A stretch of DNA of 64,000 nt from Sinorhizobium chiapasense (GTDB taxonomy: Bacteria; Pseudomonadota; Alphaproteobacteria; Rhizobiales; Rhizobiaceae). Positions within the stretch are counted from its first letter, which is position 1. Each line of letters begins with the position of its first letter. The translations under genes were made by a program, and so were the position numbers. This document shows, in pieces, positions 53,142 to 56,566 of the stretch. The DNA lies in contig NZ_CP133148.1 of NCBI RefSeq assembly GCF_036488675.1, positions 558,001 through 622,000 on the forward strand, read 5' to 3'. The notes below the pieces were generated by a model, which was not told the DNA's origin, did not search any database, and saw only the letters and a list, made by a program, of their open reading frames with translations.

Positions 53142-53882
53142 GTGGTAGATTTCAGCGCAGCTATATCCTCATTGATTCTCCCCGGCGGGCGGTCAGTCGC
53201 GGGAGCGCTGGGCAACGAAGACGATATCAAGCGGGTTCTTGGTCAGATATCGGACGCTTATGGCTTTCGCGGATTCCTGGTTTTGTCGATCCCTGATGCG
53301 GGATGCCACAGCCTGGCCGCGCAGGCGCTGATGACGACCTGGCCATCGGAGTTCCTCAGGCGCTACGACAGCGCACGACTGATCGATGGCAGCCCCGTCG
53401 TCCAGCGACTGCGCCGGAGCACGATTCCGTTCACCTACGATGCCCACCAGCTTGCGCGCAGGCGGCTCGACGGCAAGGGCGATGCCGCGGCTTGCGTTTT
53501 CGAAGCGGCCGGTCTGCCGCGTGGTCTTTATTTGCCGGTTCATGACGCATCGGGACGCCGCGCCGCTATCGCTTTTGGCGGGAGCAGAGAGCTGGCGTCC
53601 AACGACGAGATGCAGGCGCTCAACCTCTGGGCAGGCCTTCTCTACAGCCGGCTGAACGAAGTGCGAGGACGCGACAGGCGGGGACCCGGCAGCCTTTCTC
53701 GTCGCGAGATCGAGTGCCTGCGCTGGGCGGCCGCGGGCAAGACGACCATGGAGATGGCGAGAATTATGGCGCTTTCCGAATATACGGTGAATCATTACCT
53801 CAATCGCGCGACGCGCAAACTGGATTCCGTCAACCGTGTTCAGACCGTTGCCAAGGCCATGCGTGCCGGGCTGATCAACTGA
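53142..53882 (+). CDS. Orphan LuxR-family regulator, first of tandem pair
   Basis: A 246-residue protein starting with GTG, GGAG upstream. The N-terminal half resembles an autoinducer-binding domain (RVLGQISDAYGFRGFLVLSIPDA..WPSEFLRRYDSARLIDGSPVVQRLRRSTIPFTYDAH). The C-terminal LuxR HTH is complete (LSRREIECLRWAAAGKTTMEMARIMALSEYTVNHYLNRATRKLDSVNRVQ). Residues that contact acyl-homoserine lactones are altered: the Asp-Pro pair is D-G-S-P and the following Trp is Tyr. No luxI-type gene is near. It lies 168 bp upstream of a paralogue. Confidence 0.9.
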   Translation: MVDFSAAISSLILPGGRSVAGALGNEDDIKRVLGQISDAYGFRGFLVLSIPDAGCHSLAAQALMTTWPSEFLRRYDSARLIDGSPVVQRLRRSTIPFTYDAHQLARRRLDGKGDAAACVFEAAGLPRGLYLPVHDASGRRAAIAFGGSRELASNDEMQALNLWAGLLYSRLNEVRGRDRRGPGSLSRREIECLRWAAAGKTTMEMARIMALSEYTVNHYLNRATRKLDSVNRVQTVAKAMRAGLIN

Positions 53883-54038
53883 GTTTCGTTTTCGGAGAGG
53901 CTGGACGGAATATGCGGCTCGCAAAGCAGGGAAATACACAGCCTTTTGCGCAAGAATAGCGCCGAACGTCGATCATCTGTTGGCATTGGTCGACTGCTCG
54001 GGCTATTTGATTATTGATGAATGCCATGGAACGCGCGA

Positions 54039-54794
54039 ATGCAAGATACGATGACGACCGGGATGACTGACACCGATCTGCCCCGGGGCGGTGATTTCGC
54101 GTCTGAAATCGCAAGGCTTGAGACCCAGTTCGATATCATCCGCTACATGCGACGGGTCACGCAGCTCTTCGGTTTCAAGGTTTTTCTCATCTGTTCGATT
54201 CCAGCGATCGAGGTGGAAAGGCTGGCGGCAACGACCGTCATTTCCAACATGCCGGCCGAGCTGCTCAACAAATACGACAGCCTGTCGATGCTGCGCTTCA
54301 GCACCGGCGTGCGTCGCTTGAGGGAGACCACAACCCCGTTCCAGATCACGCTCGAAGACTGGGAAAACGAGGGCGGCAAGCCGACATCGGCTGCAGACTA
54401 CATCGCCATGTTGCGCGAGAACGGCATTTTCCAGGCAAACTACTTCCCGGTCCACGACGCCGAAGGCGGTCGCGGTGCAGTCATTCTCATGGGACCCGTG
54501 ATGGACTTGCCGATGACGGCGGCGATGGAATTGCAGATGATCGCGATCCACGTCTACAATCGATTGGCGGAGATCGGCTCCGTCTGGAAGAATACCAATA
54601 CAGCCCTGTCCGAGCGGGAAATCCAGTGCCTGAGCTGGACGGCGGCCGGCAAGACCAGCGCCGAAATCGCAGGTATCCTCGGTCTCTCCGAGCATACCGT
54701 CAATCACTACCTCAATCACGTTACCAAGAAGCTTGACGCGGTAAACCGCACGCAGGCGGTCGTGAAGGCGATGAAGAAGGGCTACATCAGCTGA
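54039..54794 (+). CDS. Orphan LuxR-family regulator, second of tandem pair
   Basis: About 251 residues from the ATG at 54039, which has GGAA 7 nt upstream; other ATGs lie at 54021 and 54063. It is paralogous to the gene before it. The N-terminal domain is autoinducer-domain-like (RYMRRVTQLFGFKVFLICSIPAIE..MPAELLNKYDSLSMLRFSTGVRRLRETTTPFQITLED) but lacks the signal-contact Asp-Pro and Trp. The LuxR HTH is intact (LSEREIQCLSWTAAGKTSAEIAGILGLSEHTVNHYLNHVTKKLDAVNRTQ). The pair may act as a heterodimer in the manner of VisN/VisR (inference). Confidence 0.9.
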   Translation: MQDTMTTGMTDTDLPRGGDFASEIARLETQFDIIRYMRRVTQLFGFKVFLICSIPAIEVERLAATTVISNMPAELLNKYDSLSMLRFSTGVRRLRETTTPFQITLEDWENEGGKPTSAADYIAMLRENGIFQANYFPVHDAEGGRGAVILMGPVMDLPMTAAMELQMIAIHVYNRLAEIGSVWKNTNTALSEREIQCLSWTAAGKTSAEIAGILGLSEHTVNHYLNHVTKKLDAVNRTQAVVKAMKKGYIS

Positions 54795-54831: not shown

Positions 54832-55000
54832 TCGAGCGTGTGCCTCATGCAACGCGCACAAAGTTTGCTGTCTGCGCGTCTCGTATTTGTGCGCAAATAG
54901 TATGCTTGCTCAGAAATAGTGCAGCCACCGGCGCCTGCGTTTCCAATGCGCATAACTCTCATCTAATTGAAATGACTGGATTTTTCAGCAAGGCGCGAAT

Positions 55001-55018
55001 CTGGCACGCGTTGTGCAT
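55001..55018 (+). promoter_or_regulatory. Sigma-54 (RpoN) promoter candidate
   Basis: CTGGCACG-CGTT-GTGCAT matches the consensus YTGGCACG-N4-TTGCW with one mismatch. The invariant GG (55003-55004) and GC (55015-55016) are exactly 10 nt apart. The predicted start is near 55027. About 115 bp upstream an ATTTG-TGCG-CAAAT dyad (54885-54898) could be an enhancer-binding-protein site. Neither gene on either side is an obvious nitrogen gene. Confidence 0.65.
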
Positions 55019-55026
55019 ATGTGTTG

Positions 55027-55148
55027 TCGTGTCCAGAGGGGACTACAATAAAACAGCGCCCAAGAAGGTTGCGAGGAAGCAGGGCCGCCGCCAGTCGTTT
55101 GTGATCCCGGATGTACGGACACGACGATCGGCTGGCGGCCCTGTTTTT
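55027..55148 (+). ncRNA. Candidate sigma-54-dependent small RNA or attenuated leader
   Basis: About 120 nt from the predicted start to a T5 tract. Two long-range helices are perfect: GTCGTGTCC (55026-55034) with 55117-55125, and CAGGGCCGCC (55080-55089) with 55134-55143. They are interleaved, so they form either a pseudoknot or alternative folds. The second hairpin followed by TTTTT looks like an intrinsic terminator. No credible open frame with a ribosome site occupies it. It lies between luxR and mrp, with a repeat copy after it. I do not recognise a known RNA family. Confidence 0.55.
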
Positions 55149-55187
55149 CCTAATCTGTCGCATTGGCGAACCGCTCCGCCTCGACTA

Positions 55188-55340
55188 TCTACTGCATAAT
55201 TCCTTAGATCGGGTCAGATTTGGGGATAAATTGCCTACGGCGCGCGTGTCTAGTCAGGCGCGCAAAGGACGCTGTAGCACTTTGAATTGCTGCATATTTT
55301 TATCCTTAAATCGTATACGATTTAAGGATAAGTGCAGTAG
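55188..55340 (-). repeat. RIME1-type element, copy 13, with an extra half palindrome
   Basis: A complete inverted copy at about 55233-55340 (CTACGGCGCGCGTGTC..GGCGCGCAAAGGACGCTGTAG, CAATTC linker, AAATCGTATACGATTTAAGG, GTGCAGTAG). It is preceded by a diverged first-palindrome half (CTACTGCATAATTCC, TTAGATCG..TTTGGGGATAA, 55188-55230). The composite suggests insertion of one element into or beside an older one. It separates the candidate RNA from mrp. Confidence 0.85.
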
Positions 55341-55408
55341 TGGTTCAAAGTGTTGCCGCCTGAACGACTTCTCCAGGCGCCGTAACGAAGACAGATGAAG
55401 AGGGCGGC

Positions 55409-56566
55409 ATGCCGGACGTAACCAGGGAAACGGTTCTTGAAAAGCTGCGGAGCGTGCGCGGCCCGGACATGGAGGGCAATATCGTCGATCTCGGTCTTGT
55501 CTCCGATGTCTTCATTTCCGACGGCAAGGCCTATTTTTCGATCACCGTGCCGGCCGATCGGGCGAAGGAGCTGGAGCCGATGCGCGCCGCGGCGGAGAGG
55601 GTCGTGCGCGAAATACCCGGCGTCAAGGCGGCGATGGTCGCGCTGACGGCCGATCGCAAGGCAGCACCGCAAGCGGCGCCGGTTCAAACACCGCGGCAGG
55701 TTCCGCCGGCGGGTCGTGGGCACAGTCAGCGTCCGGCCGGTGGCGCTCCGGCAAAGGCGGGTATACCCGGAGTCGGCGCCATCATCGCCGTTGCTTCCGG
55801 TAAGGGCGGCGTCGGCAAATCGACGACATCTGTGAACCTGGCACTCGCACTGCAGGCGAACGGCTTGAAGGTCGGTCTGCTAGACGCCGATATCTATGGC
55901 CCGTCCATGCCGCGCCTTCTGAAAATCAGCGGCCGGCCGCAACAGATCGAAGGGCGGCTCATTCGCCCGATGGAAAACTACGGGCTGACGGTCATGTCGA
56001 TGGGATTCCTCGTCGACGAGGAGGTTGCCATGATATGGCGCGGTCCGATGATCCAGTCGGCCCTGCTGCAGATGCTGCGCGAGGTGGCCTGGGGCGACCT
56101 CGACATTCTCGTCGTCGACATGCCGCCCGGCACCGGTGACGCGCAACTGACCATGGCCCAGCAGGTGCCGCTGGCCGGCGCCGTCATCGTCTCGACGCCG
56201 CAGGACCTCGCACTCGTCGATGCGCGCAAGGGCCTTACGATGTTCCGAAAGGTGGAAGTCCCGGTTCTCGGCATTGTCGAGAACATGAGCTATTTCGTGG
56301 CTCCCGACACGGGCCATCGTTACGACATCTTTGGGCATGGCGGCGCGCGCAAGGAGGCCGAGCGCATCGGTGTGCCGTTCCTCGGCGAGGTACCTTTGAC
56401 CATGGGCATTCGCGAAACATCCGACGCGGGAACGCCGCTGGTGGTTTCGGAACCCGAGGGCGAGGTGGCGCGCATCTACCGGAAGATCGCAGCGAATGTC
56501 TGGGAGCAGCTTTCGGCGGCTCGCCAGAGCAAGAGCAGGACGATGCCCGATATCGTCTTCGAATAG
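55409..56566 (+). CDS. mrp: Mrp/ApbC-type P-loop ATPase lacking the CxxC motif
   Basis: Iron-sulfur cluster carrier family, 385 residues. An N-terminal MIP18/DUF59 domain covers ~5-80, a Pro/Ala-rich linker ~85-120, and the MinD-like ATPase follows with the deviant Walker A SGKGGVGKSTT (131-140) and DMPPGTGDAQLT. The C-terminal position that usually carries CxxC (after NMS) reads FVAPDTGHRYDIFGHGG: residues 298-301 are Ala-Pro-Asp-Thr, so the bridging cysteines are absent. Homodimeric cluster carriage through that site is therefore unlikely. It is preceded by a repeat and the candidate small RNA. Confidence 0.92.
   Translation: MPDVTRETVLEKLRSVRGPDMEGNIVDLGLVSDVFISDGKAYFSITVPADRAKELEPMRAAAERVVREIPGVKAAMVALTADRKAAPQAAPVQTPRQVPPAGRGHSQRPAGGAPAKAGIPGVGAIIAVASGKGGVGKSTTSVNLALALQANGLKVGLLDADIYGPSMPRLLKISGRPQQIEGRLIRPMENYGLTVMSMGFLVDEEVAMIWRGPMIQSALLQMLREVAWGDLDILVVDMPPGTGDAQLTMAQQVPLAGAVIVSTPQDLALVDARKGLTMFRKVEVPVLGIVENMSYFVAPDTGHRYDIFGHGGARKEAERIGVPFLGEVPLTMGIRETSDAGTPLVVSEPEGEVARIYRKIAANVWEQLSAARQSKSRTMPDIVFE

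What the first reader, a model, noticed from the sequence alone, without database searches (positions are those of the whole stretch)
54885..55148. Candidate sigma-54-driven structured RNA between luxR and mrp
A GG-N10-GC element with the CTGGCACG..GTGCAT context (one mismatch from the sigma-54 consensus) predicts a start near 55027. The first transcribed bases (55026-55034) are perfectly complementary to 55117-55125. CAGGGCCGCC at 55080-55089 pairs with 55134-55143, followed by T5. The two helices interleave, so the RNA could switch between folds or form a pseudoknot. Promoter, structure and terminator line up within ~150 bp with no coding potential. This could be a nitrogen-regulated small RNA, or an attenuated leader of mrp.
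Basis: partly seen in the sequence, partly recalled or inferred. Interest (0 to 1): 0.8.

Follow-up and report, generated by a model that had tools for sequence, protein, structure and literature searches.

The report
Nitrogen-linked small RNA beside mrp
A short RNA gene of root-nodule bacteria and relatives, read from a promoter type used in nitrogen stress, is a sister copy of the RNA leader of nitrate-use genes that has mostly lost the part through which nitrate is sensed, so it now looks like an independent regulatory RNA.

Summary
The described features are in the sequence. The sigma-54-type promoter and terminator hairpin are conserved; the interleaved (pseudoknot) helix is not supported. 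The element occurs in 31 of 32 same-genus genomes. It is very probably S. meliloti sRNA SmelC165, already catalogued with a predicted RpoN motif, so the RNA itself is not new.

New here: (1) a model built only from copies upstream of mrp finds leaders beside nitrate-transport genes, and a model built only from those leaders finds the mrp copy; the window's genome has these two matches and no other. (2) The nitrate leaders carry the twin A1/G4 hexaloop hairpins of ANTAR (NasT) antitermination in 25 of 25; mrp-type RNAs in 5 of 63 by a loose test, 0 of 63 by two stricter ones. (3) TGC-N11-GCA, the form reported for NtrC, lies upstream in 40 of 58 mrp-type loci (2-16 for other spacings). (4) mrp has its own sigma-70-like promoter after the terminator in 49 of 63.

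Best reading: an NtrC/sigma-54 nitrogen-stress sRNA, paralogous to the nas attenuator but freed from nitrate control, acting in trans on unknown targets (inferred).

The parts
54907..54923 (.). TGCTCAGAAATAGTGCA, a TGC-N11-GCA site, proposed NtrC binding site
   Evidence: conserved block in the upstream alignment; listed per locus; 40 of 58 mrp-type loci have N11 within -145..-45, other spacings 2-16; NtrC form TGC-N11-GCA from PMC10746234 (passages)
54936..54952 (.). TGCGTTTCCAATGCGCA, a second TGC-N11-GCA match; at this place in 5 of the 89 loci listed
   Evidence: L001, L002, L004, L005, L006
55002..55017 (+). sigma-54-type -24/-12 promoter TGGCACGCGTTGTGCA
55027..55148 (+). predicted small RNA, about 122 nt (start inferred from promoter spacing)
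   Evidence: S. meliloti 4H41 counterpart 119 nt from CGTGTCC to TTTT, SmelC165 listed at 910182-910297
55031..55043 (+). hairpin SL1, GUCC-AGAGG-GGAC
   Evidence: this 4-bp stem chosen by script in 52 of 60 mrp-type loci; other pairs in nas-type loci
55056..55072 (+). hairpin SL2, at the place of ANTAR hairpin P1 of nas leaders; loop (C)AAGAA lacks A1
55080..55148 (+). long terminator hairpin SL3 with U-tract
   Evidence: covariation; fold
55108..55116 (+). apical CGGATGTAC, also in the loop of ar35-like hairpins
55163..55191 (+). sigma-70-like promoter TTGGCG-N17-TATCTA, proposed promoter of mrp
   Evidence: TTGGCG-N17-19-TATSTA in 49 of 63 mrp-type loci
55409..56566 (+). mrp/apbC, iron-sulfur carrier gene
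   Evidence: NF008669 over its cut-off; downstream neighbour in 33 of 64 loci
54021..54794 (+). LuxR-type regulator gene upstream
   Evidence: below equivalog cut-offs

Best explanation
The feature is an autonomous small-RNA gene of about 120 nt, very probably the counterpart of S. meliloti SmelC165. Polymerase with sigma-54 starts near 55027, most likely when NtrC bound at 54907-54923 is active under nitrogen limitation. The RNA folds into hairpins and ends at the intrinsic terminator 55080-55148; mrp is then read from its own sigma-70-like promoter at 55163-55191. The unit is a paralogue of the leader (attenuator) of the nitrate-assimilation operon: same promoter type, same order of hairpins, similar upstream site. 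The twin ANTAR hairpins by which NasT overrides termination in that leader are absent here, so the RNA should always terminate and act as a stand-alone RNA, probably in trans. Shown by sequence: promoter, terminator fold, homology, absence of the ANTAR loops. Inferred: NtrC as activator, expression in this species, action in trans; targets unknown.
For: 31 of 32 same-genus genomes hold it; promoter in 58 (60 with a wider window) of 62 R1-found loci; terminator covariation, 0 of 500 shuffles; reciprocal detection of mrp-type and nas-type by models built from one type only; the second element in this genome lies beside the ANTAR gene; TGC-N11-GCA in 40 of 58 mrp-type loci; ANTAR loop pair 25 of 25 against 0 of 63, loose test 25 of 25 against 5 of 63; separate mrp promoter 49 of 63; SmelC165 listed with RpoN, plus strand, one copy, Rhizobiaceae-wide with complete microsynteny.
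Against: The promoter motif alone is at chance level. In the 31 nas-type or unassigned loci N16 (13) is almost as frequent as N11 (14). glnB, a reported RpoN gene, has a similar promoter without TGC-N11-GCA, and glnK gave no pattern match, so these give no positive control for NtrC. Distances to three anchors do not fix the identity with SmelC165 (offsets 136, 160 and 154 kb; 187 kb would be needed). EcpR1's predicted sigma-54 promoter proved inactive under the conditions tested (PMC4414408 passages). Four distant mrp-type loci keep two A1/G4 hexaloops by the loose test. No expression data for this species, no target.
Confidence: 0.65

Rival explanations
1. Conditional leader of mrp: nitrogen stress starts transcription at the sigma-54 promoter and some factor lets polymerase read through into mrp, raising iron-sulfur carrier supply when nitrate and nitrite reductases are made.
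For: mrp lies downstream in the same orientation in all 33 loci called mrp-type (by definition of that class), and in the genus loci; its relative in the nas operon is a leader; PMC3927594 reports complete microsynteny for SmelC165; terminator to mrp is as short as 69-73 nt in several loci.
Against: Conserved sigma-70-like promoter after the terminator in 49 of 63 loci; ANTAR loop pair missing; strong conserved terminator.
Confidence: 0.15
2. NasT (ANTAR) decoy: the RNA soaks up NasT under nitrogen limitation, as ANTAR-binding sRNAs are known to do for ethanolamine genes (precedent recalled; search listing only).
For: Homology to the nas leader; an ANTAR protein in 39 of 39 RNA-bearing genomes searched, no control set; four mrp-type loci of other genera with two A1/G4 hexaloops by the loose test.
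Against: The P1 loop is never A1/G4 in 63 mrp-type RNAs; 1 of 33 genus loci passes the loose pair test, 0.8 expected from shuffles.
Confidence: 0.08
3. Switching or pseudoknotted RNA as first proposed, helix 55026-55034/55117-55125 competing with the terminator.
For: 9 of 9 complementarity in this sequence.
Against: No covariation; the strand has a local hairpin partner.
Confidence: 0.05
4. Relic: a duplicated nas leader kept without function.
For: Loss of the ANTAR module; no known target or phenotype in what was read.
Against: Long invariant stretches and compensatory changes in the stem point to continuing selection.
Confidence: 0.07

Closest known systems
SmelC165, S. meliloti 1021 sRNA (chromosome 910182-910297, +)
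   Same: Predicted RpoN motif, 116 nt, one copy, Rhizobiaceae-wide, complete microsynteny, stem with poly-U tail; the S. meliloti 4H41 counterpart here is 119 nt
   Different: Identity not proved by coordinates; the passages read do not mention the nas leader, ANTAR loops or an NtrC site
nas operon leader (NasT/ANTAR attenuator)
   Same: sigma-54-type promoter, hairpin order, terminator, CGGATGNAC apex in many loci
   Different: Here mrp, not nas genes, lies downstream; the P1/P2 ANTAR hexaloops are absent
ar35 / SmelB053 sRNA (Rfam RF02346)
   Same: Apical CGGAUGUAC flanked by CC/GG; in the genome 7 ar35-like copies share it
   Different: 23.1 bits against a gathering score of 45; other stems, no shared promoter shown
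Other bacterial sigma-54-driven sRNAs such as Qrr and GlmY (recalled; not compared here)
   Same: Small structured RNA from a -24/-12 promoter needing an enhancer-binding protein
   Different: No sequence comparison was made; other hosts and partners

Membership tests
SmelC165 family | RpoN-type promoter upstream | tested here: met
SmelC165 family | Size about 116 nt, ending in a stem with U-tract | tested here: met
   119 nt in S. meliloti 4H41; the start is predicted
SmelC165 family | Conserved gene neighbourhood across Rhizobiaceae | tested here: met
   mrp downstream in 33 of 64 loci read, the rest mostly nas-type paralogues
SmelC165 family | Same place in the S. meliloti chromosome (910182-910297) | tested here: inconclusive
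   order and strand fit, distances are 27-50 kb off against three anchors in strain 4H41
sigma-54 promoter | GG-N10-GC with TGGCACG/TGCW context, conserved | tested here: met
sigma-54 promoter | Transcription lost without rpoN | not testable with these tools
   needs bench work
NtrC regulon | TGC-N11-GCA site upstream of the promoter | tested here: met
   54907-54923; 40 of 58 mrp-type loci
ANTAR (NasT) target RNA | Two hairpins with hexaloops having A1 and G4 | tested here: not met
   mrp-type 0 of 63 and 5 of 63 by the loose test, nas-type 25 of 25; the window's own copy (L001) has neither
nas operon leader | Nitrate-assimilation genes downstream | tested here: not met
   mrp downstream
ar35 (RF02346) | Rfam gathering score 45 | tested here: not met
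   23.1 bits; 25.7-28.9 in four relatives
CsrA-sponge RNA | A CsrA protein in the genome | tested here: not met
   PF02599: 0 of 1 genome, 3 of 14 control genomes positive

The most novel reading that the evidence does not exclude
A nitrate-operon attenuator was duplicated next to mrp, shed its nitrate-sensing antiterminator hairpins while keeping its nitrogen-stress promoter, and became a trans-acting regulatory RNA; with its CGGAUGUAC loop it competes with nas leaders, ar35 sRNAs and cold-shock 3' UTRs for a shared, unidentified partner. This would be a traced case of an sRNA born from an attenuator by loss of its control module. (The opposite direction of descent is not excluded.)
Probability: 0.25. 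Interest if true: 0.75.

Novelty: new variant of a known kind. Interest (0 to 1): 0.52.

Why it matters
It gives a catalogued but unexplained sRNA a probable signal (nitrogen limitation through NtrC and sigma-54), a probable origin (shared with the NasT-controlled nitrate leader) and a useful negative (no ANTAR loop pair). That turns 'function unknown' into tests of a few named genes in a model symbiont, and it would be a traceable route by which a cis-acting attenuator becomes an independent RNA gene.

Tried and rejected
Pseudoknot or switch: no covariation. CsrA sponge, suggested by GGA in a hairpin loop: no CsrA found in the genome. Rfam identity: no gathering hit in the window; the weak miRNA hits are taken as chance. 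NasT decoy: loop pair absent from the window's copy and from 63 of 63 by the pattern; that pattern was drawn after seeing the nas loops, so I repeated the test with the published A1/G4 rule alone (nas 25 of 25, mrp-type 5 of 63 with stems of 3 or more pairs and 0 of 63 with 4 or more, where nas also falls to 3 of 25). Placing SmelC165 by distance anchors: order fits, distances do not settle it. CGGATGTAC as an enriched motif: 30 genome hits against 45 for the reversed control, so not enriched; 7 of the 30 are ar35-like by eye. glnB and glnK as NtrC positive controls did not help. Beyond the family: 11 of 397 order genomes matched R1, 10 of them in the same family (own genome included) and one weak (E 2e-4) in another family, not followed up. 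Seven loci (L067, L072, L079, L081, L095, L099, L100) could not be assigned to mrp or nas and were left out of the mrp and nas loop counts (in one search they pass the loose pair test in 1 of 7); 37 of the 107 rows were not read individually. No ANTAR search was made in genomes that lack the RNA. An odds change: none; the repeat test softened 'lost' to 'mostly lost' in other genera.

Full report
1. What is there. The window holds the reported elements: TGGCACGCGTTGTGCA at 55002-55017, the 9-bp complementarity 55026-55034/55117-55125, the 10-bp stem 55080-55089/55134-55143 and T5. Downstream is mrp/apbC (NF008669 over its cut-off), upstream are two LuxR-type genes that match several families below their cut-offs. 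The RNA 55027-55148 folds at -58 kcal/mol, z = -5.5. The promoter motif alone is not more than chance (2 matches, 1.53 expected; 19 hits, 35 in the reversed control).

2. Conservation. A 201-bp query that includes the promoter found the element in 33 of 60 genomes: the own genome, 31 of 32 of the same genus (the miss is 85% complete), and one of another genus. In 30 aligned loci the -24/-12 element is present in all. A covariance model (R1) of the RNA without the promoter, from 31 sequences, hit 105 of 394 family genomes in 37 of 109 genera, mixing two classes described below, and 11 of 397 genomes drawn from the order, 10 of these in the same family. Of 62 R1-found loci read, 58 have TGGCAYR-N4/5-TGC just upstream and 60 within 80 nt (with the genus loci 89 of 93); L091 and L101 lack it. 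In L032 SL1 is altered and the promoter part matches as a separate piece upstream.

3. Structure. RNAalifold and pair counting support the terminator hairpin: 9 pairs with two-sided changes, 95.6% of cells paired, all five measures above all 500 shuffles. Its 5' strand also lies in a local hairpin GUCC-AGAGG-GGAC, chosen by script in 52 of 60 mrp-type loci; in the other 8 the script picked another hairpin. In nas-type relatives this hairpin is rebuilt with other pairs (GGCC/GGCC, ATCC/GGAT, ACCC/GGGT). A middle hairpin GCG.CC/GG.CGC follows; it is nearly invariant in the genus and carries little covariation there.

4. The unexpected relative. One of the 19 sites (C5:1459417) is followed by the same order of hairpins, a terminator and an ORF whose sequence resembles a nitrate-transport binding protein; NCBIfam gave only sub-threshold matches, so 'nrtA' rests on recall and context. 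An ANTAR protein lies beside it at C5:1457870. Of the 64 loci, 33 have mrp downstream, 24 have a relative of that binding protein as neighbour (up- or downstream), and 7 stayed unassigned. A second model (R2), built only from 24 nas-type leaders, matched 32 of 34 genomes searched; in the window's genome its two matches are the nas leader (86 bits) and the window's RNA (66 bits, E 2e-15). The two elements are therefore homologous.

5. What was lost. ANTAR targets are two hairpins with hexaloops having A1 and G4; changing these weakened EutV binding and induction (PMC3369931, passages). By a pattern drawn from the nas leaders, P1 CC-AxxGxx-GG and P2 GGC-AxxGxx-GYC/GCY occur together in 25 of 25 nas-type and 0 of 63 mrp-type RNAs; P2 alone in 5 of 63. 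By the A1/G4 rule alone with stems of 3 or more pairs, two such hairpins occur in 25 of 25 nas-type, 1 of 33 genus mrp-type (0.8 expected from shuffles), 4 of 30 mrp-type of other genera (0.7 expected) and 1 of 7 unassigned; with stems of 4 or more, in 3 of 25 nas-type and 0 of 63 mrp-type. In the genus the loop at the P1 place reads (C)ANGAA. NasT control of the window's RNA is thus unlikely, though some distant mrp-type copies may keep it. An ANTAR protein occurs in 39 of 39 RNA-bearing genomes searched, without a control set.

6. Control by nitrogen. Upstream alignment shows a conserved block that contains TGC-N11-GCA. In mrp-type loci N11 occurs in 40 of 58 within -145..-45, other spacings (6-17) in 2-16; over the whole 260 bp it is 41, against 3.8 on average and 10 at most in shuffles. 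In the 31 nas-type or unassigned loci N11 has 14, but N16 has 13. TGC-N11-GCA is the NtrC form given for S. meliloti (PMC10746234, passages) and agrees in its outer bases with the pattern quoted for Paracoccus (PMC5424462, passages). Loci are related by descent, so counts are not independent.

7. mrp. Just after the terminator comes TTGGCG-N17-TATCTA; TTGGCG-N17-19-TATSTA is found in 49 of 63 mrp-type loci. It looks like a sigma-70 promoter for mrp, so the RNA seems a separate unit.

8. Literature. PMC7143759 (Table 1 and passages read) lists SmelC165, 910182-910297 (+), one copy, predicted RpoN. PMC3927594 (passages) says its family is Rhizobiaceae-wide but absent from Agrobacterium strains named there, has complete microsynteny and a stem with poly-U tail; and that SmelB053 carries the loop GGAUGUA, with 29 of 33 related 3' UTRs at genes of cold-shock adaptation. 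PMC3616915 (passages) reports 112 RpoN-type start sites and says that SmelX names come from a 454 RNA-seq study; its tables were not readable here. In PMC2873474 I read passages and section 25, which do not list SmelC165. Two papers of the library name SmelC165, none SMc00876. Searches on SMb20436/NasT and on ANTAR-binding sRNAs were seen as listings. In what I read, SmelC165 is not linked to the nas leader. The locus names SMc00876-SMc00878 for mrp and the LuxR pair are partly recalled.

9. Verdict. Conserved and, very probably, already catalogued as an RNA; the sigma-54 reading is well supported by conservation, the pseudoknot is not. The new part is the shared origin with the nitrate attenuator and the loss of the ANTAR loop pair. 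NtrC control and function in trans are inferred.

Noticed in passing
55286-55342: Palindromic stretch in the luxR-mrp gap, centred on TCCTTAAATCGTATACGATTTAAGGA; similar pieces recur in the same gap of relatives, where Rfam gave weak hits to Brucella sRNA CI27 (33.8, 32.8 and 30.5 bits, gathering 59.8). Perhaps a mobile intergenic repeat.
   Followed up: no
G000 loci L196, L198, L204, L205, L207, L215, L216: Seven ar35-like hairpins (GACCA-CGGATGTAC-YGGCA form), several followed by a GC-rich terminator, in the window's genome; ar35 and cold-shock 3' UTRs are reported to share the loop GGAUGUA.
   Followed up: partly
53142-53882 and 54021-54794: Two adjacent LuxR-type genes; the S. meliloti pair SMc00878/SMc00877 is described as AviR-like, the former affecting denitrification (PMC5977203), a further nitrate link beside this RNA (correspondence inferred).
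   Followed up: no
L032 (G011:C73): SL1 is altered and about 90 bp of other sequence separates the promoter-like piece from the RNA body.
   Followed up: no
L091 (G067:C175) and L101 (G275:C6): Copies upstream of mrp without a recognisable sigma-54 promoter.
   Followed up: no
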